Assembly: GCA_014804445.1 (NCBI GenBank) | Contig: JAAUZU010000008.1 | Span: forward strand, 135,155-199,154 | Length of the DNA: 64,000 nt | Direction of reading: 5' to 3' | DNA from: Lachnospiraceae bacterium | GTDB taxonomy: Bacteria; Bacillota; Clostridia; Lachnospirales; Lachnospiraceae | Part shown: piece after piece, positions 20,807 to 44,311 of the stretch | Layout: every line of letters starts with the position of its first letter | Position numbering within the stretch: the stretch's first letter is position 1 | Position numbers and translations under genes: made by a program | The notes under the pieces: generated by a model | The model's database searches: none | Told to the model about the DNA's origin: nothing | What the model saw: only the letters and a program-made list of their open reading frames with translations

Positions 20807-20851
20807 GTTACAGAATTGTTAAGAGCCAAATACAGAAAGGTATGTGACAGG

Positions 20852-23800: not shown

Positions 23801-24391
23801 GCTTTCGGTATCGATGTATCCAAGTGGAATGGCACGATAGACTGGAACGCAGTGAAAAATTCCGGCGTGAATTATGTCATTATCCGCTGTGGTTACAGAG
23901 GTTCTTCGTCAGGTGCGCTGGTCGTAGACCCTAAGTTTGAAGCCAATATAAAGGGCGCTACTGCGGCAGGAATCAAAGTAGGTGTTTATTTCTTCTCGCA
24001 GGCAGTCAACAACAGCGAAGCGGTGGAGGAAGCTTCCATGGTGCTGGAGTTGATTAAGAATTACAAGATTTCCTATCCGGTATTCCTTGATGTGGAGGCA
24101 TCAGGAGGCAGGGCTGACAGTATTAGTGTTGCAACAAGAACAGATGTCATTAAAACCTTCTGTCAGACGATTCAGAACAATGGGTACACGGCGGGTGTTT
24201 ATGCGAATAAAAACTGGCTTACCACCAAGATTGACACAAGCAAGCTGAACCAGTACAAAATTTGGCTGGCACAGTATGCGTCGGCGCCGACCTATACGGG
24301 AAGGTACGATATGTGGCAGTACAAATCAACCGGAAAGGTAACCGGCATCAGCGGTGACGTTGACTTAAACTGGAGTTATCTGGGATATTGA
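20852..24391 (+). CDS. Membrane-anchored GH25 muramidase-like protein with acidic Tyr-rich N-terminus, BIG2-type Ig repeats and cell-wall-binding-like repeats
   Basis: D/E/Y-rich N-terminus, TM (VVTTTGILVLVLALVTGAVYV), Pro/Thr linker (PEPTPTPTPTPTP), repeated VTLDKTEMALKEGETGKLSATVTP-type modules, C-terminal GIDVSKWNGTIDW...FLDVEAS GH25 domain. Confidence 0.9.
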   Translation: MKKLFNHTKRDYKADKNLEWDDLEYTEEFEDEVFEGDGDEEFYYSDEEAGEEVYDDAEGEFYEEDVEEPEYYEDEYYEEAAEEEEYYEAESEETYDEEAVDEEVYYEAESEEAYDEEAVDEEVYYEAESEEADYEEAVDGEVYYEAESDGAFYGEEIVEEEVYYEAESDAEGYDEETYYYEEDSAEVYGDEEPVDEYYEAEDGESLYDDFYEEDEDEEEEEEQEKILPWSAMSDKNFFQKMWYSLVHMSTMDKVVTTTGILVLVLALVTGAVYVSARAIDKEVASFDTVGSQLDNITVIGEHGLTAVADAEMARISAANAIAEEEENNNEYEENEYTKEVTVSLNMTSIEKDLKIKFVNSKTNRLVPNVPFSVTVTTPDGKTEIWSDDDMDGIIYKAGITPGSYSVSINALEGDKYADYKLPNDAQKVTVKKEIAYEKVEVADEIKKESEIDAKKEDTKENETTVESVLQDTVGWVESTQSVVGVVYTAVPRSQVPDPLATAKSMVFMRTSEVEPSEPITEPETTPEPTPTPTPTPTPEVPVVTGVTLDKTEMALKEGETGKLSATVTPAEVKDAVITFTSSNENVAKVGADGTVTAVKAGEATVTVTVDGKTATCKVTVTASQKPVITLDQSELKLEKDKEATLKVTVTGAEEGKQAVTFTSSDTTVVTVDKDGKLKALKAGEATITVTLDADKDVKAECKVTVTEDTRTLTLSETALSMVVGVNKDVKATIGGAAISGTITAESDNAAVATVTVSKTENGVATITVTPKAAGTAKITVGIKDDGKTEAALTQVLTVTVGNGTITLNKTTIGVLAGASGELSATVDSSNADAKITVTSSNDKVATATATGTVAGGKTTIKIVVNGVAAGTATITVNHPDGGTATFTVTVGSKDTKLVGSDGKQLYVLVNGEYKEALYADYYNTAITTFYVKTDGVTKYTGWQTINGKLYYYDAGGKYVTGEQVIQGAKYTFASDGSLVVGNGAFGIDVSKWNGTIDWNAVKNSGVNYVIIRCGYRGSSSGALVVDPKFEANIKGATAAGIKVGVYFFSQAVNNSEAVEEASMVLELIKNYKISYPVFLDVEASGGRADSISVATRTDVIKTFCQTIQNNGYTAGVYANKNWLTTKIDTSKLNQYKIWLAQYASAPTYTGRYDMWQYKSTGKVTGISGDVDLNWSYLGY
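21090..21380 (+). repeat. Imperfect tandem coding repeat (~57-60 bp unit)
   Basis: Repeated VDEEVYYEAESEEAYDEEA-type units in the acidic N-terminus. Confidence 0.8.
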
Positions 24392-24441: not shown

Positions 24442-24461
24442 GGGAAAGGATTCTTTTGATT

Positions 24462-25547
24462 ATGAGAACTTATCTGGTAACAGGAGGAGCAGGCTTTATC
24501 GGTTCCAATTACATTCACTACATGTTTAAAAAATACGGCGATGCGATTCGTATTATTAATGTGGATGTGCTGACTTATGCAGGAAACCTTGAAAATCTGA
24601 AGGATATTGAGGGCAGGAGTAATTACAGCTTTGTGAAGGCAGATATCTGCGATAAGGAAGCCATTCGCCGCGTATTTGCCGAAAACGACATTGACAGGGT
24701 GGTACATTTTGCGGCGGAAAGCCATGTGGACAGAAGCATCCGCAATCCCGAGGTGTTTGTGCAGACAAATGTGTTGGGAACGGCGGTTATGCTGAACTGT
24801 GCAAAAGAAGCGTGGGAGCTTCCTGACGGAACTTTTAAGGAGGGCAAGAAGTTTCTGCATGTATCGACGGATGAGGTGTATGGTTCCCTGCCGGACGACG
24901 ACAATGCGTTCTTTTATGAAACCTCGCCCTATGAGCCGCACAGCCCCTACTCAGCCAGCAAGGCGAGTTCGGACATGCTGGTAAAGGCATATATGGATAC
25001 CTATCATTTTCCGGCTAATATTACCAACTGTTCTAACAATTACGGACCTTATCAGTTCCCTGAAAAGCTGATACCGCTTATTATCAACAATGCCCTTTCG
25101 GGGAAAAAGCTTCCGGTATACGGTGACGGAAAAAATGTCCGCGACTGGCTTTACGTGGAGGACCATGCCAAGGCAATCGACATGGTACAGGAGCAGGGCA
25201 GGCTGTTTGAAACCTATAATATCGGCGGCCACAATGAAAAGCAGAATATCGAGATTATCAATATTATTCTGGAAACCCTGAGGGAGATGCTGCCCGACAC
25301 CGATGAGAGAAAAGCGCACATCACAAAGGATTTAATTACCTACGTGGAAGACCGCAAGGGACACGACAGGCGCTATGCCATCGCTCCTGACAAGATTAAG
25401 GCGGAAATCGGCTGGTATCCCGAGACCATGTTTAAGGAAGGCATCAAAAAGACGATAGCGTGGTACTTTGAGCACGAGGACTGGATGAAAAACGTGACAA
25501 GCGGTGATTATCAGAAGTATTACAGCGACATGTATGAGACAAAATAA
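24462..25547 (+). CDS. rfbB: dTDP-glucose 4,6-dehydratase
   Basis: YLVTGGAGFIGSNYIHYM, HFAAESHVDRSI, SPYSASKASSDMLVKAY; canonical RmlB. Confidence 0.96.
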   Translation: MRTYLVTGGAGFIGSNYIHYMFKKYGDAIRIINVDVLTYAGNLENLKDIEGRSNYSFVKADICDKEAIRRVFAENDIDRVVHFAAESHVDRSIRNPEVFVQTNVLGTAVMLNCAKEAWELPDGTFKEGKKFLHVSTDEVYGSLPDDDNAFFYETSPYEPHSPYSASKASSDMLVKAYMDTYHFPANITNCSNNYGPYQFPEKLIPLIINNALSGKKLPVYGDGKNVRDWLYVEDHAKAIDMVQEQGRLFETYNIGGHNEKQNIEIINIILETLREMLPDTDERKAHITKDLITYVEDRKGHDRRYAIAPDKIKAEIGWYPETMFKEGIKKTIAWYFEHEDWMKNVTSGDYQKYYSDMYETK

Positions 25548-25569
25548 ACCGCACCATATATAAACGCAA

Positions 25570-25597
25570 GGGAACGGTCGGGATCGTTCCCTTTTTT
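25570..25597 (+). terminator. Rho-independent terminator after rfbB
   Basis: gggaacg-gtcgggat-cgttccc followed by a T run. Confidence 0.85.
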
Positions 25598-25607
25598 GCA
25601 GCAGTAA

Positions 25608-25751
25608 GGGACGCCGTCCTCGCCCCCATATTCCTATTCGAACGCGCTCTCGCTCGAATAAAAACGCAGTGGACACTAGGCTCGAAAGGACCTCGCCAAG
25701 TGCCAGCGTTTTTATACGGTTCTCATAGGAATATGGGGGAGAGGACGGCTG
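25608..25751 (+). repeat. Palindromic intergenic element, copy A
   Basis: Outer arms 25613-25637 / 25725-25749 (24/25 complementary); inner stem ataaaaacgc / gcgtttttat; shares core with copies B-F. Confidence 0.9.
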
Positions 25752-25973
25752 ATACCACAAGGAGGGAATGTTATGACGCGGGAAGAAATGAAATTATCGG
25801 TGGAACTCCTTACTGCGTTCACGATAATTGGCTGTATACGATTTCTGTATCTAACTCGTATAATGCAGTCCGCATGATAATTTGTGTGAAACCTGTTGCA
25901 ATAGATGAAATTTATAAAAAGTAGGAAGTTATAAATTATAAAAAGCTCGTGCAGACGGAAAAGTTTTTGCTAT

Positions 25974-26129
25974 TTTCAGCCGGCAGCGAACCCCTATGTC
26001 TCGGCAGACCGTATAAAAACGTTGGCGCTTGGCGAGGTCACTCACGAGCCTAGCGTCCACTACGTTTTTATTCGAGCGGGAGCGCGTCTGTAGAGACATA
26101 GGGGTTCGCTGCCGGTGTGACTCGCCGCA
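25974..26129 (-). repeat. Palindromic intergenic element, copy B (opposite orientation)
   Basis: Outer arms 25980-26002 / 26093-26115 (23/23 complementary); core matches copy A in reverse complement. Confidence 0.9.
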
Positions 26130-26288
26130 AGACTTCTTTCCGTTTAGGCAGGCACTCCCTTTTTTCCATATTTCGGTATGCAATTCCCCCCGAACATGCT
26201 ATAATAACCAGTAAAGTGGTAAAGTCTGACTCTGTAAAACCATAAATTGAGTGGCTTTATCCCCATAACAAATAAAAGGAGTACATCT

Positions 26289-27158
26289 ATGAAAGGAATT
26301 ATACTTGCCGGAGGTTCCGGCACCAGACTGTATCCGTTGACAAAAGCAATATCCAAACAGATTATGCCGGTATACGACAAGCCGATGATATACTATCCTC
26401 TTTCCATTTTGATGCTTGCGGGCATCCGTGAAATTCTGATTATTTCTACACCGAGGGATTTGCCGGTGTTTGAAGAGCTTTTAGGAGACGGGGAGCAGCT
26501 TGGCATGAAACTGTCCTATGCGGTGCAGGACAAGCCGAGAGGACTTGCGGACGCCTTTATTATCGGAGCGGATTTTATCGGCACGGACAGAGTTGCGCTG
26601 GTTTTGGGAGATAATATTTTTTATGGGCAGAGCTTTTCGCGGGTGCTGCGGGAAGTGGCATCGAGGGAGAAGGGAGCAACCATCTTCGGCTACTATGTAA
26701 GAGATCCGAGGGAGTACGGTGTGGTAGAATTCGACGAGAACGGCAAGGCGTTGTCCATTGAGGAAAAGCCGGAGAATCCGAAGAGCAATTATGCGGTGCC
26801 GGGGCTGTATTTTTATGACAATGACGTGGTGGAAATTGCCAGAAACGTGAAGCCCTCCGCAAGAGGCGAAATTGAAATTACAAGCGTCAACAACGAATAT
26901 CTGCAGAGGGGAACCCTGCATGTGGAAACCCTTGGAAGAGGCTTTGCTTGGCTGGATACGGGCAACCACGATGCGCTTTTGGACGCCTCTGATTTTGTGT
27001 CGGCTTTCCAGAAAAGACAGGGACTCTATATTTCCTGTATTGAGGAAATTGCATACAAGCGGGGCTTTATTACCAAGGAACAGCTTTTGAAACTGGCGGA
27101 ACCCTTGATGAAAACCAATTATGGGCAATATTTGGTAGAGGTTGCAAATGGACTCTAA
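26289..27158 (+). CDS. rfbA: Glucose-1-phosphate thymidylyltransferase
   Basis: [39 protein letters not shown]; canonical RmlA. Confidence 0.96.
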
Positions 27159-28401
27159 ATTAAAGCGACTTACAATTTTGGCGGCTGTTTCGGTAGGGCT
27201 TTTGACTGTTTTGACGGTACTGCTTTTGAACAGTCCTTCCCCACAAGGCAATTATGAAGCGACGGAGCCGTCTGAGACGACACGGCCCGGTACGGGAGCT
27301 GTATTTGAAAACGGACAGATAGGAAATGACTTGTCGGCTTTTATGCGGGATGAGACTTTTTTTGACGAGGAAGAAAACGAATTTCTGGAAAATCTGAAAA
27401 ATGAGCAGAACCGCCTTTCCTTGATTGTTACCTCCGTGGAAAAGGATTTGCGTATTCAGATTGTGGACAGCGACAATCAGCCCGTGAGCGGCGAAAGCTT
27501 TTTTGTGACGCTTAAGGGTATGGGCGATTACAAGGATTTGGATAAAGACGGCATTATCTATATCGGAGATTTGGCGGCGGGCGATTACGAGGTGTCCTTA
27601 AAGCCCATTGAGGGCTATAAAGTGCCGTCCGGCACTACGAAAGTCAGGGTGAAGGACAAGGTAGAATATCTGGTAATCGAGGATATTTCCCTTTTGATTA
27701 AGACGGAGGAAGAAATTGATGCGGAGGCGGAGGATACCGCGCAAGTGGTGGACGACGCCGACAAAACCGAAATTAAGGGCGTACAGGCAGTTTCGGGAAC
27801 GGCTTCTCTGGGAATTGACGTATCAAAATGGCAGGGAGAAATCGATTGGGACAAGGTAAAAAATGACGGCATCGAGTTTGTGATTATCCGCTGCGGCTAT
27901 CGTGGAAGCGTGACGGGAACGCTTGTAGAGGATCCTTATTTTGAACAGAATATCAGAGGCGCGACGGCGGCGGGACTGCAGGTTGGTGTGTACTTCTTTA
28001 CACAGGCAGTAAACGAGGTGGAGGCTGTCGAGGAAGCGAGTATGGTGGTCAGCCTTATCAGGGATTATGAGCTGACGTATCCTGTCTTTATTGATACGGA
28101 GGGCGCAGGCGGCAACGGCAGGGCGGATTCCTTAAGTGTGGAACGCCGGACAGCCGTGTGCGAAGCGTTCTGTACCACAGTGGAGAACGCAGGCTTTGAG
28201 GCGGGCGTCTATGCAAGCCGCAACTGGTACAACAAAAATCTGGAAACTGCATTTTTAGATGATTTTGTCATTTGGCTTGCAGAGTACCGGAGTGTTCCCC
28301 TCTATCAGGGTTACTACCAGATGTGGCAGTATACCTCCAAGGGCAGTGTGAACGGCATCAGCGGCAACGTGGACATGAATATCAGTTATATGGGATATTA
28401 G
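27148..28401 (+). CDS. Membrane-anchored GH25 muramidase-like protein (short paralogue of 20852-24391)
   Basis: N-terminal [35 protein letters not shown]...FIDTEGAGG; shares the [14 protein letters not shown] domain with the larger protein. Confidence 0.9.
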
Positions 28402-28427
28402 AAACAAAGGCGGAAAGGAAAAGGAAG

Positions 28428-28991
28428 ATGGGAAAGATTACGGTTGAAACATGTGAGATAGAAGGGCTTAAGATAATTACACCGCAGGTTCACGGGGATG
28501 CAAGAGGATATTTCATGGAGACCTATCAGTACAATGACTACAAGGAAGCCGGCATCGATGAAATCTTTGTGCAGGACAACCAGTCCGCTTCCAAGCGTGG
28601 CGTGCTGAGAGGGCTTCATTTCCAGAAAGAGTTTCCGCAGGGAAAGCTGGTCAGGGTAATAAAGGGAGAGGTTTTTGATGTGGCGGTGGACCTGCGTGCC
28701 GGTTCTCCTACCTTTGGCAAGTGGCATGGGGTGATTTTGTCTGAGGAAAATAAAAAGCAGTTCTTCGTGCCGAAGCACTTTGCGCATGGTTTTCTGGTGC
28801 TTTCGGAATATGCGGAATTCTGCTATAAATGCACGGATTTCTATCATCCCGGCGACGAGGGCGGACTGATGTGGAACGACGCGGATATCAAGGTTGACTG
28901 GCCTCTGCAGGAAGGCGCCCCGCTGATTTTATCGGAGCGTGACACAAAATGGGGCAGTTTTAGCGAGTATGTAAAAAATATGGCGGATTAA
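28428..28991 (+). CDS. rfbC: dTDP-4-dehydrorhamnose 3,5-epimerase
   Basis: GDARGYFMETYQYNDYKEAGI, QDNQSASKRGVLRGLHFQ, FFVPKHFAHGFLVLSEYAEF. Confidence 0.95.
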   Translation: MGKITVETCEIEGLKIITPQVHGDARGYFMETYQYNDYKEAGIDEIFVQDNQSASKRGVLRGLHFQKEFPQGKLVRVIKGEVFDVAVDLRAGSPTFGKWHGVILSEENKKQFFVPKHFAHGFLVLSEYAEFCYKCTDFYHPGDEGGLMWNDADIKVDWPLQEGAPLILSERDTKWGSFSEYVKNMAD

Positions 28992-29023
28992 ATTGCCGTT
29001 TGCACGGCGGAATACGAGGAAGC

Positions 29024-30016
29024 ATGAAGAGTAAAATTTCCAAAAAAACCGGAATTATGATATTCTGCGGGCTGGCAGCGATTATGGCGGCCATTATTGT
29101 CGTGCACCGCAATCCGCTGGCGGACGGGCAGGAAGAACTCTTAAAAAAGGTGGTTTCCTGTGTGGTGATTTTGGCGTCCTGCGTGTTGTTTGGACTGCTG
29201 TATGACAAAATAACCAGCCTGCCTGTCGAGCTGTATCACAGCAGGCGGCTTATCTGGAAACTGGCAAAAAATGATTTTAAGAAGCGGTACGCGGGCTCCT
29301 TTTTGGGTGTGATATGGGCGATGGTGCAGCCGGTAGTCACGGTAGTGATGTACTGGCTGGTGTTTGACGTCATTATGCACGGCGCGGGCAGGGCGATGCG
29401 CGGCGGAGAGGAAATTCCTTTTGTACTCTTTTTGACCGCGGGTCTGGTTCCCTGGTTTTATTTTAATGAGGCATGGACAAACGGCACAATGGCGCTGTTA
29501 GAGTATAACTATCTGGTGAAAAAGGTGGTATTTAAAATCAGTGTACTGCCCATTATAAAGATAATCGGCGCTACTTTTGTCCACGTTTTCTTTGTGGGAA
29601 TCCTGTTAATTATCGCCTGTTTTTATGGGTATTTTCCGACGATTTATACGATTCAGGTGGTTTACTACAGCATCTGTACTTTTGTGCTGGTGCTGGCGCT
29701 GAGCTATTCCACCTGTGCGCTGGTGGTGTTTATGCGGGATGTTTCGCAGATTATCAACATTATTTTGCAGGTAGGCATGTGGGCGACGCCGATTATGTGG
29801 GACTTTGGCGCTATCAGCTCCGGCTGGGCAGTCTTTTTAAAGCTGAATCCCATGGTATATATCGTCAACGGCTATCGCAGCGCCATCTATGAACATTCAT
29901 GGTTTTGGGAGGATTTCTTTTCTACCATGTATTTCTGGATTATCACAGTGGTGTTGTTTGGCGTGGGTGCGCTGATATTTAAAAAACTTAAGGTGCATTT
30001 TGCGGATGTACTGTAA
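29024..30016 (+). CDS. ABC-2 type polysaccharide exporter permease (Wzm/TagG-like)
   Basis: LAKNDFKKRYAGSFLGVIWAMVQPVVTVVMYWLVF, GLVPWFYFNEAW; start 29024 preferred over 29000. Confidence 0.93.
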   Translation: MKSKISKKTGIMIFCGLAAIMAAIIVVHRNPLADGQEELLKKVVSCVVILASCVLFGLLYDKITSLPVELYHSRRLIWKLAKNDFKKRYAGSFLGVIWAMVQPVVTVVMYWLVFDVIMHGAGRAMRGGEEIPFVLFLTAGLVPWFYFNEAWTNGTMALLEYNYLVKKVVFKISVLPIIKIIGATFVHVFFVGILLIIACFYGYFPTIYTIQVVYYSICTFVLVLALSYSTCALVVFMRDVSQIINIILQVGMWATPIMWDFGAISSGWAVFLKLNPMVYIVNGYRSAIYEHSWFWEDFFSTMYFWIITVVLFGVGALIFKKLKVHFADVL

Positions 30017-30033: not shown

Positions 30034-31323
30034 ATGGAAGAAAAACAACCGGCAATCAAGGTCGAGAACGTCAAAAAAATATATAAACTGTATGACAAGC
30101 CTTCGGACAGGTTTAAAGAGGCGTTTGGTCTGGCAAAAAACAGGCATAAGGAGCATTATGCCTTAAACGGCGTCAGCATGGAAATCATGCAGGGAGAGAC
30201 TGTGGGTATTATCGGGACGAATGGCTCCGGCAAGTCCACTATTTTAAAGATTATTACGGGAGTCCTCAACCAGACGGAAGGGGAAGTGACGGTAAATGGG
30301 CGCATTTCCGCCCTGCTTGAGCTGGGCGCCGGCTTTAATATGGAATATAACGGGATTGAAAATGTATACTTAAACGGCACCATGATGGGCTTTTCGGAGA
30401 AGGAAATCGATGAGAAGCTGCCGGAGATACTAAAGTTTGCGGATATCGGTGACTATGTATATCAGCCGGTCAAGACCTATTCCAGCGGTATGTTTGTCCG
30501 GCTTGCCTTTGCCGTGGCGATTAATATTGAGCCGGAGATTCTGATTGTGGACGAGGCACTGTCGGTGGGCGACGTATTTTTTCAGGCAAAATGTTATCAG
30601 AAGTTTGAAGAATTTAAAAAACTGGGCAAGACCATTGTGTTTGTCAGCCACGATTTGAGTAGCATCAGCAAGTACTGTGACAGGGTGTATCTGCTCAATC
30701 GGGGACAGCTTTTGGGGGACGGCAGCCCCAAGGAGATGATAGACGCGTTCAAACGCGTATTGGTGGGACAGTACGAGATTCCCGACGAGACGGAGGAACA
30801 CGATATTACCCTGCCTGAGGATGGTGTCAATCCTGAGGTTTTGGAGTATGGCACAAAGCAGGCTGAAATGACGGAATTTTATATTACGGACGAGAAGAAT
30901 GTCAGGACAACCGCCTTGATAAAGGGTTCTGAGTTTACCATTCATGTAAAGGTGAAGTTCCACGAGAGAATCGTTGCGCCCATCTTTGCTTTTTCCTTGA
31001 AAAATGTTAAAGGAACCGAAATCACGGGAACCAACAGCATGATAGAGAAGGCGTTTTTGGAGCCCGTGCGCGAGGGAAGTGTAAAGGAAGTAACCTTTAC
31101 GCAGAAAATGAGTCTGCAGGGAGGAGAATATCTTTTGTCCCTCGGCGTGACCGGCTATGCCGGCAGTGATTTTCAGGTGTACCACCGCCTTTATGACGTG
31201 CTGAATATCACCGTAGTATCGGATAAGGATACCGTGGGCTTCTACGATATGAATTCAAAGGTTACGGTCCGCGAAGCTGTTGACGGCGAGGCGCGTATTA
31301 TCCCATACCGGCAGGAGGCGTAG
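30034..31323 (+). CDS. ABC polysaccharide exporter ATPase (Wzt/TagH-like) with Wzt-type C-terminal domain
   Basis: VGIIGTNGSGKSTILKIITGVL Walker A; LIVDEALSVGDVFFQAKC; ~190 aa C-terminal beta-rich extension like the Wzt carbohydrate-binding domain. Confidence 0.93.
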   Translation: MEEKQPAIKVENVKKIYKLYDKPSDRFKEAFGLAKNRHKEHYALNGVSMEIMQGETVGIIGTNGSGKSTILKIITGVLNQTEGEVTVNGRISALLELGAGFNMEYNGIENVYLNGTMMGFSEKEIDEKLPEILKFADIGDYVYQPVKTYSSGMFVRLAFAVAINIEPEILIVDEALSVGDVFFQAKCYQKFEEFKKLGKTIVFVSHDLSSISKYCDRVYLLNRGQLLGDGSPKEMIDAFKRVLVGQYEIPDETEEHDITLPEDGVNPEVLEYGTKQAEMTEFYITDEKNVRTTALIKGSEFTIHVKVKFHERIVAPIFAFSLKNVKGTEITGTNSMIEKAFLEPVREGSVKEVTFTQKMSLQGGEYLLSLGVTGYAGSDFQVYHRLYDVLNITVVSDKDTVGFYDMNSKVTVREAVDGEARIIPYRQEA

Positions 31324-31353: not shown

Positions 31354-33384
31354 ATGACAGAGCAAATTGGAAAAGTAATCTTAAATCTGAGTCATTATAC
31401 AGGCATGGACTTATATTCCGACGGCAAGGTGGAGGATGAACTGTTAGAGATTGTAAAGAATCATCCGCAGGCAGACTATCAGCAGCTTATCGAAGAGCGG
31501 GCAAGCTGGCCGGTGCTCTATCATCTTTCCTCACTCCGTGAAAATATTGTGGATTGGATTCCTATGGACGCAGACGCCAAAGTGCTGGAGATAGGAAGCG
31601 GCTGCGGTGCGATTACGGGCGCTTTGTCCCGAAAGGCAGGAGAAGTGGTCTGCGTGGATTTGTCGAAAAAGCGCAGCATGATAAATGCACACAGACACAG
31701 TGAATGTGAAAATGTGACAATCCATGTAGGCAATTTCAGGGATATCGAGCCGGATTTGCCGGCGGATTTTGATTATATTTTTCTGATTGGGGTTTTTGAG
31801 TATGGCCAGAGCTACATGGGTAAGGACAAACCTTTTGAAGAGTTTCTTTCCATCGTGTTAAAGCACCTGAAAAAGGGCGGCAGAGTGGTGATTGCCATAG
31901 AAAATAAATATGGGCTGAAATATTTTGCGGGCTGCAAGGAGGACCATCTGGGAACGTGGTTTTCGGGCATAGAGAACTATGCGGACGGCGGCGGAGTCAG
32001 AACCTTTTCACGGAAAGGACTGGAAAAGATTTTTGCTGCCTGTGGCGTAAAAAAGTACCATTTTTATTACCCGTACCCTGACTATAAGTTTATGACGACG
32101 CTGTACTCGGATGCGTATCTGCCGGGAAAGGGAGAACTCTTCAATAACATGCGCTATTTTGACAGGGACAGGCTGGTTTTGTTTGATGAGAGCTATGCTT
32201 TTGACGGCATTGTGGAGGACGGGCTTTTTTCTGTATTTTCCAATTCTTATGAAGTGATTATCGGGGATGATTTTGATGTAAAATACAGCAAATATTCCAA
32301 TGACAGGGCACCTGAATACCGGATACGGACGGAAATCAGCAGGGATAAAAAAGGTGCGGCGACTGTCAGGAAATATCCGCTGTGTGAGGAGGCGGAGGAG
32401 CACATCCGTGAGATGCCCGTCGCGTACAAGAACCTTTTAGAGCGCTATGCGGGCGGCAATCTGGCAATCAATCGGTGCGAACTGTGCGAAGAGGAGAAGA
32501 AGCTATGGGTTTCCTTTGAATTTCTGGAGGGCAGGCTCTTGTCGGAGCTTATGGATGCGTGTCTGGAGAAGGAAGATTTCGAGGGATTCAAGACTTTGTT
32601 TAAGCAGTATGTGGAGCGGACGGGATACAATCAGGAATTTCCGGTTGCGGACTTTGATTTGACCTTTGACAATATTGTGGTGCAGGGGAATGAGTGGAGC
32701 GTTATCGACTATGAGTGGACCTTCGGAAAGGCTGTGGATGTGAAGGAACTGGCTTTTCGTGCCGTCTACTGCTATCTGCTCGGAGACAAAAAGCGAGAGA
32801 AGCTGAAACTGGACATGATATTGGCGGAACTGGGAATTACGGACGCTGAGGCGGAGTATTACAAGGAGCAGGAAAAGGATTTTCAGGGCTTTGTGACAGG
32901 GAAAAATAAGGCGATGGCGGAAATCCTCGGCCTTTTGGGGAAGAGGGCAATCAGGCCGGTAGGCGCTCCGGACAGTGTGCAGGTGTATGAGGATAAGGGC
33001 AGCGGATTTTCAGAGAGGGAGTCCCGTTTTGTGCAGGAACTGTATCCGGACGACAGAGAGGTAGATTTGGAATTAAAAGTGGAGGGAAGCGTGGAGACTT
33101 TCAGAATCGACCCTTCCATGGAGCCGTGCGTGGTAAGAATTGAGGAGCTGACCTTTAATGGGAAAGAGGTGCCTGTCAGGAATAAAAAGATATTCTATAC
33201 AAATGGCAAGCCGCTGAAACAGACGCAGGGCTTTGTCTTTTCGGTTGCAGACCCGAATCTCTACATAAGGGTTTCAGCACTTGACAGGCAGCCGGAAAAT
33301 ACGCTTCATATCAAAATGCAGGTGGTGAAACTGCCGACAGAAGTTGCGAAAGATATTGCGGGAGCAGTTAAAAAACTGATTTAA
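31354..33384 (+). CDS. Fusion: class I SAM methyltransferase + kinase-like (APH/WbdD-type) domain + C-terminal beta domain
   Basis: VLEIGSGCGAITGALSRKAGEVVCVDLS (SAM motif I); VRKYPLCEEAEEHIREM (candidate kinase Lys); DFDLTFDNIVV...VIDYEW (candidate catalytic loop and metal-binding Asp). Confidence 0.7.
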   Translation: MTEQIGKVILNLSHYTGMDLYSDGKVEDELLEIVKNHPQADYQQLIEERASWPVLYHLSSLRENIVDWIPMDADAKVLEIGSGCGAITGALSRKAGEVVCVDLSKKRSMINAHRHSECENVTIHVGNFRDIEPDLPADFDYIFLIGVFEYGQSYMGKDKPFEEFLSIVLKHLKKGGRVVIAIENKYGLKYFAGCKEDHLGTWFSGIENYADGGGVRTFSRKGLEKIFAACGVKKYHFYYPYPDYKFMTTLYSDAYLPGKGELFNNMRYFDRDRLVLFDESYAFDGIVEDGLFSVFSNSYEVIIGDDFDVKYSKYSNDRAPEYRIRTEISRDKKGAATVRKYPLCEEAEEHIREMPVAYKNLLERYAGGNLAINRCELCEEEKKLWVSFEFLEGRLLSELMDACLEKEDFEGFKTLFKQYVERTGYNQEFPVADFDLTFDNIVVQGNEWSVIDYEWTFGKAVDVKELAFRAVYCYLLGDKKREKLKLDMILAELGITDAEAEYYKEQEKDFQGFVTGKNKAMAEILGLLGKRAIRPVGAPDSVQVYEDKGSGFSERESRFVQELYPDDREVDLELKVEGSVETFRIDPSMEPCVVRIEELTFNGKEVPVRNKKIFYTNGKPLKQTQGFVFSVADPNLYIRVSALDRQPENTLHIKMQVVKLPTEVAKDIAGAVKKLI

Positions 33385-33399
33385 CAGGAGGTGTTCCTT

Positions 33400-35313
33400 T
33401 TGAAACTAAAAAAAGTGGTCAGACAGCAGTTAGAAAAACTGTTTGATATAAAATACAGAGTAAAGCGGAAGCATTATGTATGGGACTATAACAGTTGGGT
33501 GAAGGAGTTAGAGCAGACTGGGGCGAAGGAGAATCAGAGTGCTGCGACAACACAGCAGGAGCCGCCGGAAGCTGTGCTTCTTTCTTTCTCGGGAGGTTGT
33601 TGGAGAAAGGACGCGCAGGCGTACATGAACCGCTTTTTTGCTGAAAATCCTGAGGTTTTGCTTGCTTACGGGGATGAGGACATGATAGTAAAAAAGAATG
33701 TTTTTTCGAATCCCTGGCTCAAACCCTGCTGGTCGCCGGACGCCTATCTGTGCAGAGACTATCTGGGGAACGCAGTGGCAGTGCGCAGAAGTCTTTTTGA
33801 GCAGCTTACAGAGGAGGAATGTCAGGACGAGGGCTTGTGTCATGACAAGCTGGTGGCGCTTGCAGGCGGTTTCACAAAAGGCTGCAGGGCGATAGCCCAT
33901 GTAAATGGCATTTTCTTTCACCGGCAGGAGCAATGGGCGCTGCCGGGAGAGGGCAGAAGCGGCAGCCGGATAAAACTGCAGGAGACGAAAAAGGACGTGC
34001 CGGAAAAAAAGGCGGCAGATACGCTGGTTTCCGTTATTATTCCCTCCAAAGATAACGTGTCTGTATTAAAACAGTGTCTGGAAGCTCTTTGCCGGACTGT
34101 AAAGGAAACGGCCTATGAAATCATCGTGGTGGACAACGGGAGCAGCGCGCAGAACAAAGGAGCCGTTTCGGAAGAAATCGACAGGTTAAACCGCGATGCG
34201 GCATGTAAAGCGCACTTGCGGAGGGCTGTCTACCTGTACAAGTCCATGGAATTTAATTTTTCCCGCATGTGCAATCTGGGGGCAAAAGAGGCGAAGGGGA
34301 ATCTGCTTTTGTTTTTGAACGACGACGTCACGGCGGTGGAGGAAGGCTGGCTGGATGCAATGGCGCAAAAGGCGCTGCAGCCCTGGGCCGGTGCGGTGGG
34401 CTATAAACTGCTTTATCCGGATGCAGAGCGGATTCAGCACGCCGGCGTTACCAATCTCAGTATGGGTCCTGCGCACAGATTACAGCGTTTAAAGGACAGC
34501 GAATGTCATTATGACGGCAGAAACAGGGGCGTCTGGAATATGCTTGCGGTGACAGGTGCATGCCTGATGCTGCGAAGAAAAGTCTTTGAGGATGCGGGCG
34601 GCTTCTGTGAAAAACTGAAAGTGGCTTTTAATGATGTGGATTTGTGCTTTACTTTGTATGAGCAGGGATATCAAAACCTTGTGATTAACAGCGGCTTTTT
34701 GCTGCACCATGAATCTTTAAGCCGTGGTTTGGATAATGAGGACGAGGAAAAAGCAAAGCGTCTGCTGGGCGAGCGTGATATGTTGTATGAGCGCCATCCG
34801 AATTTGGAGGGCTGGGATCCGTATTATCATATCTGGCTGAATGGAAGTGTGCTGGATCCGGAAATTAAGCTGGTAGAAGTGATTCCGATTGATGATATAA
34901 GAGCATTTGAGGATGCGCGGGAGTACGATTTGACGGTGAATCTGGCGAAGGCGCGCGAGGACAAATGCCTGTTTATAGGGATAGAGATTGCCAATAAGAA
35001 ACAGGTGACAGGTTATGCAATGGTGCTCGGGAGCGATAACGCCTTCTTTAAAAAGCAGCTTCTGCTGCAAAAGGAGGGCGAGCCTAAAATTGTCTATGGT
35101 ATGGACTTTACGGAACAGTACCGCGCTGACTTGGAAAAGAACACGGACCAGGTTAATGTGGGACTTTGCGGTTTTTATCTTTTGTTTAAAGAACCGCTTC
35201 CGGCAGGAGAGTACCGCCTCGGTATGTTGGCGAGAGACCAGATATCGGGCAAAGAACTGATAAACTGGAGCAACCGTACCATCGTATCGGGCAGGAGGAG
35301 AAAAAAGCACTAA
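33400..35313 (+). CDS. GT2-family glycosyltransferase
   Basis: LVSVIIPSKDNVSVLKQCLEALCRTV...EIIVVDNGSS...LLFLNDDVTAV; start TTG 33400 (or GTG 33391) after GGAGG. Confidence 0.88.
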   Translation: MKLKKVVRQQLEKLFDIKYRVKRKHYVWDYNSWVKELEQTGAKENQSAATTQQEPPEAVLLSFSGGCWRKDAQAYMNRFFAENPEVLLAYGDEDMIVKKNVFSNPWLKPCWSPDAYLCRDYLGNAVAVRRSLFEQLTEEECQDEGLCHDKLVALAGGFTKGCRAIAHVNGIFFHRQEQWALPGEGRSGSRIKLQETKKDVPEKKAADTLVSVIIPSKDNVSVLKQCLEALCRTVKETAYEIIVVDNGSSAQNKGAVSEEIDRLNRDAACKAHLRRAVYLYKSMEFNFSRMCNLGAKEAKGNLLLFLNDDVTAVEEGWLDAMAQKALQPWAGAVGYKLLYPDAERIQHAGVTNLSMGPAHRLQRLKDSECHYDGRNRGVWNMLAVTGACLMLRRKVFEDAGGFCEKLKVAFNDVDLCFTLYEQGYQNLVINSGFLLHHESLSRGLDNEDEEKAKRLLGERDMLYERHPNLEGWDPYYHIWLNGSVLDPEIKLVEVIPIDDIRAFEDAREYDLTVNLAKAREDKCLFIGIEIANKKQVTGYAMVLGSDNAFFKKQLLLQKEGEPKIVYGMDFTEQYRADLEKNTDQVNVGLCGFYLLFKEPLPAGEYRLGMLARDQISGKELINWSNRTIVSGRRRKKH

Positions 35314-35372: not shown

Positions 35373-37376
35373 ATGGATTATAAAGAGGCATATGAAAAGG
35401 AACATATCAAAAATGCGGAGCTGGCGGGACAAATAGCTGATTTAGAGGCGAAAAATGAAGAACTGCAGTCTAAGCTGGACCGCCTTGCAAAAAATCCGCT
35501 TTGGAAAATCACGAAGCCGCTTCGGAGCATGCTGCGCTGGGGAACCCGGCAGGCAAAGAGGGTGGCAAACTGCGGCGGACCGAAGGGCATTGCCGCTAAG
35601 CTGGCATACAAAAAAAGGGAACATACCGCCATGAAACAGTTGGGAACGGCAAGCTTTCCCACACCGGAGCAGGCGGCTCTTGAGAGAGAAACAGTTTTTG
35701 ACAGACCTGTCAGAATTAGTATTCTGGTTCCGCTCTACAACACACCGGATGCTTTTTTGCGCGAGATGCTGGACTCTGTATTGGCGCAGACTTATGAAAA
35801 CTGGGAGTTGTGCCTTGCGGACGGTTCTGATGCAGAGCATGCGTATGTGGGGGATGTCTGTCGAAAGTATATAGAGAAGGACAGGGAATATCTTGCCGCG
35901 AAAGAACATATGACAAATATGTCAGAAATACCGGAAAGCCGGATTATATACCGAAAGCTTGCGAAAAACGGCGGGATTGCAGAAAACACAAATGCCTGTT
36001 ATGAAATGGCAGCAGGAGAATATGTGGGGCTGTTCGACCATGACGATATTTTGCATCCGAGCGCGCTCTTTGCCTATGCAAAGGCGATTAACGAGCAGGG
36101 GGCGGATTACCTTTACTGTGACGAGGCGACCTTTAAGAACGGCAATATTAACCGGATGCTGACCATACATTTTAAGCCGGATTATGCGCCGGACAATCTG
36201 CGTGCCAACAATTATATTTGTCATTTCAGCGTATTTGCAAAGAGGCTGATGGAGGGTACGGAGCTTTTCAGAACTAAATTTAACGGCAGTCAGGACCACG
36301 ACATGATACTGCGGCTGACGGACAGGGCGGAAAAAATCGTGCATATTCCGGGGCTGCTCTATTATTGGCGCTCTCATGAAGGGAGCGTGGCGTCCGGCAT
36401 CGATGCCAAGCCCTATGCGGTACAGGCGGCAAAGGGCGCGGTTTCAGAGCATTTGAAGGCGCACGGCTTTGAAAACTTTAAGATAGAGAGCACGCGTGCC
36501 TTTGAAACCATTTTCCGTATCCGTTATCAGATAATCGGGAATCCTAAGATATCCATCATTATTGCCAACAAAGACCACGGGGAGGATTTGCGCAGGTGCA
36601 TTTCTTCCATTTTGAAAAAGTCTACCTACGACAATTATGAAATAATTGTTGTGGAAAATAACAGTACGGAGCCGGAAATTTTTTCTTACTACAAGGAACT
36701 TGAAACGGAGGAGCGCATAAAGCTCGTTACCTACAAAGGCGGTTTTAATTATTCTGCCATCAACAATCTGGGGGTGAAGCATGCTTCCGGCGACTATGTA
36801 CTGCTTTTGAACAATGACACGGAGGTTATCAGCGTAAACTGGCTGGAGGAACTTCTGATGTATGCACAGCGCGAGGATGTGGGAGCCGTGGGCGCTAAGC
36901 TGTATTATGCGGACAAGACCATACAGCATGCGGGCGTCGTCATCGGACTGGGCGCTCACAGGACGGCGGGGCACACCCATTATAAAAAGCCGCGGCAGAA
37001 TCTGGGTTACATGGGGCGGCTCTGCTATGCCCAGAATGTATCTGCGGTCACAGGTGCGTGCCTTATGGTGAAAAAAGCGGATTATGAAGTGGCGGGCGGG
37101 CTTGACGAGAGTTTTGCGGTGTCCTTAAACGATGTTGATTTTTGCCTGAAACTTCGCGGGATGGGGCTTTTAAACGTGTTTACGCCTTTTGCGGAGCTCT
37201 ATCATTACGAGTCTGCGTCGAGGGGGCTTGACGACAAAGGAGAAAAGGCGGAACGGTACAATGCAGAGTCGGAGCGTTTCCGCAGTAAATGGCGGGAAGC
37301 GCTGGAGGCGGGCGACCCTTATTACAACCCCAATTTCTCTCTGGACAGAAGCGATTTTTCTTTAAAAGTGAAATAA
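35373..37376 (+). CDS. GT2-family glycosyltransferase with two GT2 domains
   Basis: RISILVPLYNTPDAFLREMLDSVLAQTYENWELCLADGSD and KISIIIANKDHGEDLRRCISSIL...LLLNNDTEVI. Confidence 0.92.
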   Translation: MDYKEAYEKEHIKNAELAGQIADLEAKNEELQSKLDRLAKNPLWKITKPLRSMLRWGTRQAKRVANCGGPKGIAAKLAYKKREHTAMKQLGTASFPTPEQAALERETVFDRPVRISILVPLYNTPDAFLREMLDSVLAQTYENWELCLADGSDAEHAYVGDVCRKYIEKDREYLAAKEHMTNMSEIPESRIIYRKLAKNGGIAENTNACYEMAAGEYVGLFDHDDILHPSALFAYAKAINEQGADYLYCDEATFKNGNINRMLTIHFKPDYAPDNLRANNYICHFSVFAKRLMEGTELFRTKFNGSQDHDMILRLTDRAEKIVHIPGLLYYWRSHEGSVASGIDAKPYAVQAAKGAVSEHLKAHGFENFKIESTRAFETIFRIRYQIIGNPKISIIIANKDHGEDLRRCISSILKKSTYDNYEIIVVENNSTEPEIFSYYKELETEERIKLVTYKGGFNYSAINNLGVKHASGDYVLLLNNDTEVISVNWLEELLMYAQREDVGAVGAKLYYADKTIQHAGVVIGLGAHRTAGHTHYKKPRQNLGYMGRLCYAQNVSAVTGACLMVKKADYEVAGGLDESFAVSLNDVDFCLKLRGMGLLNVFTPFAELYHYESASRGLDDKGEKAERYNAESERFRSKWREALEAGDPYYNPNFSLDRSDFSLKVK

Positions 37377-41735: not shown

Positions 41736-43142
41736 ATGATTAAAGATAACCAAAAAGTCTTTAACAGGCTGCACCTGATTATGGACATACTGATAGTCAT
41801 AATTTCATACGCGATGGCGTGGTTCCTGCATTTTCAGGTATTTAATGATTTCGGACCGGATATGGGTATTCTTCCGGCGGAGTACTACATGCGGGCGCTG
41901 ATTGTCATTGTGCCGGCTTATATCCTGCTATACTATTACTGTAATGTATATAAACCGCAGAGGACTTCCGGATATGGCCGGGAAATTTACAGTATTTTTT
42001 GTGCCAATACAATCGGGCTGGTAGCTTTTGTAGCGTTGCTCTACATTATAAAACTGAATGACTATTCCCGAAAGATGTTTTTTATCTTTTATGTGCTGAA
42101 TATCGGGCTGACTTCCCTGTCCCGCCTGATTGTCAGAAAAACGCTCCGCACGCTGCGTGCAAAAGGGCGGAATCTCAAGCACATTCTGCTGGCAGGTTAT
42201 TCCAGGGCCGGAGAGGAATATATTAACCGTATTTTGGGCAATCCCGAGTGGGGCTATGTGGTCTGCGGTATTCTGGATGATTTTGTGCCGGCGGGAACGC
42301 TCTACCGCGGCGTCAAGGTTTTGGGAAGAATTGACAATCTGCATGAGATATTGCCGGAAAATGAATTGGATGAAATTGCCATTACACTTTCGCTTAAAGA
42401 TTATGACAGATTGGAAGAGATTGTAAGCATTTGTGAGAAGTTTGGTGTGCATACTAAATTCATACCGGACTACAACAGCATGATACCGAGCAAGCCTTAC
42501 ACCGAGGATTTGATGGGACTTCCCGTTATCAACATCCGTTATGTGCCGCTGAGCAATACCTTAAACAGCATGGCAAAGCGGCTGGTGGACATTGCAGGCT
42601 CTTTGGTGGGCATTGTAATCACATCGCCGATTATGCTGATAGCTGCAATCGCAATTAAAATAAGCAGTCCGGGACCTGTCATTTTTAAGCAGGAGCGCGT
42701 CGGGCTGCACAGCAAGTCCTTTTATATGTATAAATTCAGAAGTATGGAGCAGCAGAAGCCTTCCGAGGAGCAGAAGGCGTGGACGGTCAAGAACGACCCG
42801 AGAGTAACGGGAATTGGGCGGATTCTCAGAAAGACCAGTATAGACGAGCTGCCGCAGCTTTTCAATATTCTGCGGGGCGATATGAGTCTGGTCGGACCGA
42901 GACCGGAGCGGCCGCATTTTGTGGAAAAATTCAAAGAAGAAATTCCGCGTTATATGGTAAAACATCAGGTAAGACCCGGATTGACCGGCTGGGCGCAGGT
43001 GAATGGTTACAGGGGAGATACTTCCATACGCAGAAGAATCGAATATGATTTGTATTATATTGAAAACTGGTCTATGCTTTTTGACATTAAGATAATATTC
43101 TTAACCTTTTTTACAGGTTTTATAAATAAAAATGCTTATTAA
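41736..43142 (+). CDS. Undecaprenyl-phosphate sugar phosphotransferase (WbaP/CpsE-type)
   Basis: N-terminal TMs; C-terminal KRLVDIAGSLVGIVITSPIMLIAAIAIKISSPGPVIFKQERVG...DELPQLFNILRGDMSLVGPRPERPHF. Confidence 0.95.
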   Translation: MIKDNQKVFNRLHLIMDILIVIISYAMAWFLHFQVFNDFGPDMGILPAEYYMRALIVIVPAYILLYYYCNVYKPQRTSGYGREIYSIFCANTIGLVAFVALLYIIKLNDYSRKMFFIFYVLNIGLTSLSRLIVRKTLRTLRAKGRNLKHILLAGYSRAGEEYINRILGNPEWGYVVCGILDDFVPAGTLYRGVKVLGRIDNLHEILPENELDEIAITLSLKDYDRLEEIVSICEKFGVHTKFIPDYNSMIPSKPYTEDLMGLPVINIRYVPLSNTLNSMAKRLVDIAGSLVGIVITSPIMLIAAIAIKISSPGPVIFKQERVGLHSKSFYMYKFRSMEQQKPSEEQKAWTVKNDPRVTGIGRILRKTSIDELPQLFNILRGDMSLVGPRPERPHFVEKFKEEIPRYMVKHQVRPGLTGWAQVNGYRGDTSIRRRIEYDLYYIENWSMLFDIKIIFLTFFTGFINKNAY

Positions 43143-43180: not shown

Positions 43181-44311
43181 ATGGCAACAAAAGGTAAAAA
43201 CGAAAAACAGCCTGCAGCAAAGCAGACGCAGAAAGCAAAAGGAAAGAAAAAAAGCAAATTTATTATTTTTGCGGTAGAAATTTTAGTGCTGGCAGTGCTG
43301 CTGGGTGCATTATGGCTGTTCAAGGATTTCGGAACGCAGGCAGACAATAATACGACGGGAAATAAGGGACCGTTGTTTGCAGTTGACTTTAATGAGCAGG
43401 ATATTGTGATAAATCCGCAGGTGGCTGAAAATGAAACCATGGAACTTTACAGAAACATCGTACTTTTCGGCGTGGATTCCAGAACAGGACAGCTTGCCAA
43501 AGGAACTCTGAGCGACTGTATCATTATTGCTTCCATCAATGAAGAGACAGGCGATATTAAGCTTGTGAGCGTTTATCGGGATACATATTTAAATCTCGGC
43601 AACGATAAGTATGGAAAGTGTAATTCAGCATACAGCTACGGTGGAGCAGAGCAGGCAATCAAAATGCTGAATACCAATTTGGATTTGGATATCAAGGAAT
43701 TTGTCACGGTAGGATTTGACGGTCTGGCAGCTACCATCGATGCGTTGGGCGGTGTATGGCTCGATGTGGATGAAGAAGAGTTGCTTCATATCAACAACTA
43801 TCAGAAGACCATGGCAGAGGATATGAAGGTGGCGTGGACGCCCGTGGAAAATACCGGTTATCAGCTTTTGAACGGTCTGCAGGCTACTGCATACTGCCGT
43901 ATCCGTTATAGGTCTGGCAACGATTTTGCAAGAGCCGCATCGCAGCGTGAAGTGATTCTGGCTATCGCAGAACAGGCAAGAAAAGCGGATTTACAGACGT
44001 TGGTAAAGATTGCAAATGATGTATCGCCCTATGTATATACCTCCTTTAGCTTAGATGAGATTATTGCATTGCTCGGAGATATTTCAAAATACCAGATTGT
44101 AGATCAGGCAGGTTTCCCGAAAGCGGATATGAGAGGCTCTGATATTCTTGGAGCAAAGGGAAGCTGCGTATTCGGAATTGATTTGGTGGACAATGTAAAG
44201 TGGCTGCATGAGTATCTGTTTGAGGATACGGATTACCAGCCGTCTCCCGAGGTGGTGGACTACTCCAATGTCATTCACGATTTTGTATCACAGTATGTAG
44301 ATTTAAAATAA
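43181..44311 (+). CDS. LCP (LytR-CpsA-Psr) family glycopolymer transferase
   Basis: NIVLFGVDSRTGQLAKGTLSDCIIIASINEETGDIKLVSVYRDTYL; YCRIRYRSGNDFARAASQREVI. Confidence 0.95.
   Translation: MATKGKNEKQPAAKQTQKAKGKKKSKFIIFAVEILVLAVLLGALWLFKDFGTQADNNTTGNKGPLFAVDFNEQDIVINPQVAENETMELYRNIVLFGVDSRTGQLAKGTLSDCIIIASINEETGDIKLVSVYRDTYLNLGNDKYGKCNSAYSYGGAEQAIKMLNTNLDLDIKEFVTVGFDGLAATIDALGGVWLDVDEEELLHINNYQKTMAEDMKVAWTPVENTGYQLLNGLQATAYCRIRYRSGNDFARAASQREVILAIAEQARKADLQTLVKIANDVSPYVYTSFSLDEIIALLGDISKYQIVDQAGFPKADMRGSDILGAKGSCVFGIDLVDNVKWLHEYLFEDTDYQPSPEVVDYSNVIHDFVSQYVDLK

What the first reader, a model, noticed from the sequence alone, without database searches (positions are those of the whole stretch)
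31354..33384. WbdD-like methyltransferase-kinase fusion beside a Wzm/Wzt-type exporter
The protein has an N-terminal SAM methyltransferase, then a kinase-like region with candidate ATP Lys (VRKYP), catalytic loop (DFDLTFDNIVV) and metal Asp (VIDYEW), then a beta-rich tail. It directly follows an ABC exporter whose ATPase carries a Wzt-like C-terminal domain. In E. coli O8/O9a, WbdD caps the chain by methylation/phosphorylation and the Wzt domain reads the cap. An analogous cap-and-export length control in a Gram-positive surface polymer would be notable.
Basis: partly seen in the sequence, partly recalled or inferred. Interest (0 to 1): 0.75.

Follow-up and report, generated by a model that had tools for sequence, protein, structure and literature searches.

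The report
O7-type methyltransferase-kinase cap enzyme, Lachnospiraceae
A gut-type Gram-positive bacterium carries an enzyme that very probably ends and tags a growing rhamnose-rich surface sugar chain with a phosphate/methyl cap, next to an exporter with a matching cap-reading domain; this logic was worked out in Gram-negative O antigens, and here it appears across about half of the sampled genera of one Gram-positive family.

Summary
Window 31354-33384 encodes a 676-aa protein: SAM methyltransferase, then a true protein-kinase-fold domain with its catalytic residues conserved, then a beta-rich tail. It lies 30 bp behind Wzm/Wzt, and the Wzt C-terminus matches the E. coli O9a cap-binding domain. 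The label 'WbdD-like' holds for function only. By sequence it is not detectably WbdD. It belongs with the methyltransferase-kinase terminator of Klebsiella pneumoniae O7 (ORF6-O7): it aligns over 609 residues with a Pseudomonas protein whose SAM residues carry exactly the published ORF6-O7 numbers. The neighbouring glycosyltransferase gtB is the C-terminal half of that same fused protein, and a Lachnospiraceae relative has both in one polypeptide. In 250 Lachnospiraceae genomes (about one per genus), 124 of 127 with this enzyme also have a Wzt C-terminal domain, usually adjacent. Best explanation: it phosphorylates and methylates the non-reducing rhamnose, ends growth and licenses export; an LCP protein then anchors the polymer. 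Two corrections: the enzyme has no coiled-coil ruler, so ruler-type length control is unsupported; and Gram-positive capping has a precedent (WsaE methyl cap). Cap chemistry and export gating are inferred, not shown. New variant of a known kind.

The parts
31354..33384 (+). methyltransferase-kinase terminator candidate (MTK), 676 aa
31354..32253 (+). SAM methyltransferase domain (residues 1-300), E79xGSGCG85, Y21, Y56, D102, Y150
   Evidence: Pfam; conservation; correspondence with published ORF6-O7 SAM residues
32260..32973 (+). protein-kinase-fold domain (residues 303-540)
   Evidence: AlphaFold pLDDT 92, Foldseek, profile search
32371..32373 (+). K340, beta-3 lysine of the kinase
   Evidence: 71/75 homologues; lies in predicted strand 336-342
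32656..32673 (+). catalytic loop D435-x4-N440
   Evidence: 68/69 homologues each; aligns to HRDLxxxN of GCN2/JAK
32707..32715 (+). metal-binding D452 and E454 (IDYEW)
   Evidence: 69/69 homologues
32974..33333 (+). beta-rich tail domain (residues 541-660), probable carbohydrate-binding module
   Evidence: predicted strands 542-659; related domain found fused to glycosyltransferases in L045 and L056; no Pfam match
29000..30016 (+). Wzm, ABC-2 permease
   Evidence: PF01061 5.7e-15
30034..31323 (+). Wzt, export ATPase with C-terminal cap-binding-type domain
   Evidence: PF00005 and PF14524; 37% to E. coli O9 Wzt
30841..31251 (+). Wzt_C domain (residues 270-406)
   Evidence: PF14524 6e-40; 2R5O 2.9e-7
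33391..35313 (+). gtA, GT2 glycosyltransferase
   Evidence: PF00535
35358..37376 (+). gtB, two-GT2-domain glycosyltransferase, homologous to the C-terminal half of the fused P. asturiensis protein
   Evidence: PF00535 two stretches; 38.6% over 570 aa, 1.6e-121
35409..35495 (+). short N-terminal heptad-repeat helix of gtB (residues 18-46)
   Evidence: heptad scan; same length in orthologues
24456..25547 (+). rmlB, dTDP-rhamnose pathway
   Evidence: by sequence; 392 bits to annotated rffG of Citrobacter
26247..27158 (+). rmlA, dTDP-rhamnose pathway
   Evidence: by sequence; matches annotated rfbA of Citrobacter
28422..28991 (+). rmlC, dTDP-4-dehydrorhamnose 3,5-epimerase
   Evidence: PF00908 3.1e-72
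41736..43142 (+). polyprenyl-phosphate sugar-1-phosphate transferase (chain initiation)
   Evidence: PF02397 1.1e-74
43181..44311 (+). LytR-CpsA-Psr protein (probable attachment to peptidoglycan)
   Evidence: PF03816 1.1e-29

Best explanation
The protein is a Gram-positive, O7-type chain terminator. gtB with gtA and further transferases extends a rhamnose-containing chain on a polyprenyl carrier. The kinase domain phosphorylates the non-reducing terminal sugar (probably rhamnose), which stops elongation; the methyltransferase then methylates that phosphate. The Wzt C-terminal domain binds the capped end and Wzm/Wzt exports only finished chains; an LCP protein links the polymer to the wall. Shown here: the domains, intact catalytic residues, homology to the O7-type terminator, fusion of terminator and polymerase in relatives, tight linkage to Wzt_C. 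Inferred: substrate, cap chemistry, order of steps, export gating, wall attachment.
For: 1) Full-length homology (27%, 609 aa, 1e-44; profile 2.9e-58) to a P. asturiensis protein with methyltransferase-kinase-beta-helix-GT2-GT2 layout, whose residues Y28, Y66, G91, G93, E112, Y158 bear the very numbers published for K. pneumoniae ORF6-O7 and whose catalytic Asp is D443 against D441. ORF6-O7 was shown in vitro to add phosphate and methyl-phosphate to terminal Rha; its D441A mutant makes polymer that is not displayed (PMC11231755). 2) gtB equals the other half of that fused protein; a Lachnospiraceae genome has MTK+gtB in one 1347-aa ORF. 3) Kinase fold and residues. 4) Wzm-Wzt(CBD)-MTK order also in P. 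asturiensis, and with rmlBACD in Citrobacter braakii. 5) MTK and Wzt_C co-occur in 124 genomes, 3 MTK only, 21 Wzt_C only, 102 neither (odds ratio 200); 69 of 85 listed MTK matches start within 400 bp after a Wzt_C match. 6) The best Wzt_C domains of genomes with MTK score <=1.1e-37 with one exception (G538), those of genomes without MTK >=2.3e-34, consistent with a distinct cap-reader class. 7) Rhamnose genes in the operon.
Against: No biochemistry. The K. pneumoniae ORF6-O7 sequence itself was not in any searchable collection; the link rests on a close architectural relative and residue numbering. No extended coiled coil in MTK, unlike all characterised terminators of this kind. The usual alpha-C glutamate is not conserved in the kinase; an invariant His350 sits nearby. 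A related enzyme in the same genome lies in a flagellin region without Wzt, so the family can act outside export. Co-occurrence is inflated by shared ancestry and operon linkage.
Confidence: 0.75

Rival explanations
1. The enzyme caps the chain by methylation alone, or by phosphate alone; one domain is structural in this lineage.
For: Methyl-only caps exist (K. pneumoniae O5, PMC11231755; WsaE 2-O-methyl; A. aeolicus 3-O-methyl). In vitro, ORF6-O7 methylated only part of its phosphorylated product.
Against: Both active sites are conserved across 69-75 homologues, including distant ones with the methyltransferase and kinase on separate genes.
Confidence: 0.12
2. It decorates internal sugars or side branches with (methyl)phosphate and does not terminate chains.
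For: Phosphate decorations of Gram-positive rhamnans are common (e.g. glycerol phosphate on S. mutans SCC, PMC11754754, though added outside the cell). No ruler coiled coil fixes the enzyme to chain ends.
Against: Fusion with the polymerase in relatives, near-exclusive linkage to Wzt_C, homology to a proven terminator.
Confidence: 0.1
3. It is a genuine WbdD orthologue.
For: Same domain order and same gene order after Wzm/Wzt as in E. coli O9; same D-x4-N catalytic-loop spacing (D351/N356/D369 in WbdD; D435/N440/D452 here).
Against: No detectable sequence relationship beyond the SAM motif; no coiled coil; extra beta tail; clear homology elsewhere.
Confidence: 0.02

Closest known systems
K. pneumoniae O7 ORF6 N-terminal half (ORF6-O7-N), methyltransferase-kinase terminator (PMC11231755)
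   Same: Domain order methyltransferase-kinase-beta module; corresponding SAM residues and catalytic Asp at near-identical spacing; linked to Wzm/Wzt and to a GT2-GT2 rhamnosyltransferase; rhamnose polymer.
   Different: Separate gene here, not fused to coiled coil and GTs; no extended coiled coil; Gram-positive host with LCP protein; SAM acidic residue is D102 instead of E112 (both common in the family); reported orthologues were from alpha- and gammaproteobacteria and cyanobacteria only.
E. coli O9a WbdD with Wzm/Wzt (PMC3482155)
   Same: Bifunctional methyltransferase plus kinase fold directly downstream of Wzt with C-terminal cap-binding domain.
   Different: No sequence homology in the kinase; WbdD ends in a coiled-coil ruler and acts on polymannose; no beta module.
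Geobacillus stearothermophilus WsaE / slg cluster (PMC2943079)
   Same: Gram-positive, polyrhamnan, Wzm/Wzt, WbaP-type initiating enzyme, terminating methyltransferase fused to two rhamnosyltransferases.
   Different: Methyl cap only, no kinase reported; S-layer glycan rather than an LCP-linked polymer. Sequence not compared here.
Aquifex aeolicus Wzm/Wzt with 3-O-methyl Rha/Man caps (PMC9445017)
   Same: Closest full-length PDB match of the window Wzt (8dku, 6e-78); cap reading by a C-terminal domain.
   Different: Methyl cap, Gram-negative LPS.

Membership tests
O7-type methyltransferase-kinase terminator | N-terminal SAM methyltransferase with the conserved SAM residues | tested here: met
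   Pfam; Y21, Y56, G81, G83, D102, Y150 correspond to Y28, Y66, G91, G93, E112, Y158
O7-type methyltransferase-kinase terminator | Kinase-fold domain after the methyltransferase with catalytic Asp | tested here: met
O7-type methyltransferase-kinase terminator | Ig-like/beta module after the kinase | tested here: inconclusive
   beta-rich domain predicted and aligned with the P. asturiensis tail; fold not compared separately
O7-type methyltransferase-kinase terminator | Extended coiled coil separating terminator and polymerase | tested here: not met
   none in the window protein; a short heptad helix is at the start of gtB; other Lachnospiraceae members are fused. Filed as a variant that works like the O7 terminator, not as a full member by architecture.
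O7-type methyltransferase-kinase terminator | Direct sequence homology to ORF6-O7 | not testable with these tools
   K. pneumoniae O7 sequence not held; tested by proxy against P. asturiensis
O7-type methyltransferase-kinase terminator | Phosphorylates then methylates terminal Rha | not testable with these tools
   needs biochemistry
WbdD | Sequence homology to WbdD kinase and methyltransferase | tested here: not met
WbdD | Coiled-coil ruler with membrane helix at the C-terminus | tested here: not met
   model ends in a 13-residue helix; no heptad run
Wzm/Wzt exporter with cap-binding domain | Wzt C-terminal domain PF14524 and ABC-2 permease partner | tested here: met

The most novel reading that the evidence does not exclude
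About half of Lachnospiraceae genera make a surface rhamnan whose export is licensed by a phosphate-type cap on its non-reducing end, with terminator and polymerase variously fused or split, and, in the window's lineage, chain length set without a coiled-coil ruler on the terminator; a second branch of the enzyme family caps flagellin glycans.
Probability: 0.45. Interest if true: 0.72.

Novelty: new variant of a known kind. Interest (0 to 1): 0.6.

Why it matters
If true, cap-gated ABC export, known mainly from Gram-negative O antigens, is a common way for a dominant gut Gram-positive family to build surface rhamnans. It predicts a specific, so far unreported end group on polymers of the same family as the immunologically active Ruminococcus gnavus glucorhamnans, and offers natural split and fused versions of the same machine to test how chain length is set with and without a coiled-coil ruler.

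Tried and rejected
WbdD orthology by BLASTP and profile comparison: rejected. Foldseek of the whole protein: only methyltransferases in the list, uninformative for the kinase, so the kinase was folded alone. Pfam and PHROGs for the kinase region: nothing useful (the scattered hits such as ArsR and IDEAL are chance). The genome-contig scan with one sequence gave only two near-identical MAGs. O7-type relatives in E. coli genomes: none by DNA. Literature on methyl-phosphate caps or Wzt-type capping in Lachnospiraceae: nothing found.

Full report
Check of the observation. Window 31354-33384 (+) is one open frame of 676 codons from an ATG. The N-terminal third is a SAM methyltransferase (PF08242 1.1e-9, PF13649, PF08241 and others above cut-off). 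The middle third matches no Pfam family in the window protein. I aligned 22 genus-level orthologues and then 46 kinase-region sequences, including relatives in which the kinase is a separate gene. AlphaFold on the kinase region gave mean pLDDT 92.2 with the canonical element order, strands 22-28 and 34-40, helix 43-62, strands 73-78 and 81-87, then the helical lobe. All of the top 50 Foldseek PDB matches are protein-kinase-like folds (RIO2, SYK, FGFR2, PknB, the macrolide phosphotransferase MphH; E about 1e-6 to 2e-5), with low TM-scores of about 0.35-0.47 as expected for a remote relative. A profile of the same alignment finds GCN2 (1.2e-5) and JAK1/2 (about 3e-4) with the D-x4-N loop aligned to HRDLxxxN. 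K340, D435, N440, D452 and E454 are conserved in 71/75, 68/69, 68/69, 69/69 and 69/69 homologues.

What family it is. I fetched WbdD from E. coli HS (annotated O9-family wzt and wbdA neighbours): BLASTP E = 0.059 on the SAM motif only, and the kinase profile gives probability 0.5%. Literature search led to the second known kind of methyltransferase-kinase terminator, K. pneumoniae O7 ORF6 (PMC11231755). Its paper describes methyltransferase, unannotated kinase-like domain (closest to AmiN), Ig-like module, coiled coil and two GT2 modules; SAM residues Y28, Y66, G91, G93, E112, Y158; catalytic D441. A tblastn search of plasmids with the window protein found a P. asturiensis protein of 1457 aa with this layout. 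Counting from its annotated start, its residues are Y28, Y66, G91, G93, E112, Y158 and D443. The window protein aligns to it over 609 residues (27%, 1e-44), with Y21, Y56, G81, G83, D102, Y150 and D435 in the same places. This is a strong but indirect membership argument, because the Klebsiella sequence itself was not available.

Gene context. Across the genus the order is mostly rmlB, rmlA, a GH25 protein, rmlC, wzm, wzt, MTK, gtA, gtB, a phosphohexomutase, gtC, gtD, a polyprenyl-phosphate sugar transferase; in the window an LCP protein follows. In Citrobacter braakii the order rmlBACD ... wzm, wzt, methyltransferase, GTs recurs on a plasmid, although that protein matches the profile only over the methyltransferase and the start of the next domain, and its metal-binding Asp motif reads FEREW. 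gtB aligns to residues 908-1449 of the P. asturiensis protein (38.6%, 1.6e-121), so MTK and gtB together equal one fused O7-like protein. Within Lachnospiraceae, G521 encodes exactly this fusion in 1347 residues, while others split the methyltransferase and kinase into two genes.

The exporter. Wzt is 37% identical to E. coli O9 Wzt along its length, including the C-terminal domain; that domain alone finds only 2R5O in the PDB with significance. In 250 Lachnospiraceae genomes, about one per genus, MTK and Wzt_C are both present in 124, MTK alone in 3, Wzt_C alone in 21, neither in 102 (odds ratio 200; Fisher p = 2e-44, not corrected for shared ancestry). Of 85 listed MTK matches, 69 start within 400 bp downstream of a Wzt_C match, and 11 more lie within 5 kb. 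Genomes lacking MTK have only lower-scoring Wzt_C domains (best E 2.3e-34, against 1.1e-37 or better with MTK, one exception). The same genome has a second Wzm/Wzt with a weak Wzt_C and no MTK beside it.

Mechanism. From the O7 work (in vitro phosphorylation and partial methylation of terminal Rha; D441A gives polymer that is not displayed) and the anatomy here, I propose: chain growth by gtB, gtA and further transferases; phosphorylation of the terminal sugar by the kinase domain ends growth; methylation of the phosphate completes the cap; Wzt_C reads the cap; Wzm/Wzt exports; LCP attaches. Domains, residues, homology, linkage and fusion are shown; substrate, chemistry, gating and attachment are inferred.

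Length control. All characterised terminators of this kind carry a coiled-coil ruler (PMC11231755). The window enzyme has none: its model ends in a 13-residue helix and no heptad run is found, whereas the same simple scan picks up WbdD. gtB has a short N-terminal heptad helix of constant length in orthologues, which could be a dock but hardly a long ruler.

Known or new. Cap-and-export in a Gram-positive polyrhamnan was proposed for Geobacillus (WsaE, 2-O-methyl; PMC2943079). What appears new is a kinase-bearing, phosphate-type terminator in Gram-positives, its breadth in Lachnospiraceae (126 of 249 genera sampled have a relative), and the ruler-less split form. Hence 'new variant of a known kind'.

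Noticed in passing
L024:9889-11625 (G000:C8:271966; also L096:1889-3625): A 578-aa paralogue (methyltransferase plus kinase with D-x4-N and D452/E454 equivalents intact, no beta tail) lies among glycosyltransferases near flagellin- and FliD-like genes, with no Wzt_C match nearby: possibly a cap or decoration enzyme for flagellin glycans.
   Followed up: partly
L099:7339-9478 (G000:C8, about 8 kb upstream of the window start): A second Wzm/Wzt pair with a weak Wzt_C (9.9e-8) and no methyltransferase-kinase relative nearby.
   Followed up: partly
20816-24391 and 27142-28401: Two GH25 lysozyme-domain proteins sit in and beside the rhamnan operon and are conserved in this position across most of the genus; one has Big_2 repeats and choline-binding-type repeats.
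   Followed up: partly
L045:2388-3908, L056:1-877: The beta-rich tail domain (motif ...RIDP...) also occurs fused to GT2 glycosyltransferases, so it looks like a mobile carbohydrate-binding module without a Pfam entry.
   Followed up: partly
L093:1871-7543: A 1890-aa ORF starts with methyltransferase-kinase and continues into a glycosyltransferase-like region, the largest fusion seen.
   Followed up: no
24456-28991: rmlB, rmlA and rmlC are present but no rmlD was recognised in the cluster.
   Followed up: no
12873-15854: Fused fucose pyrophosphorylase and GHMP sugar kinase (FKP-like), a probable GDP-sugar salvage enzyme, upstream of the rhamnan cluster.
   Followed up: no
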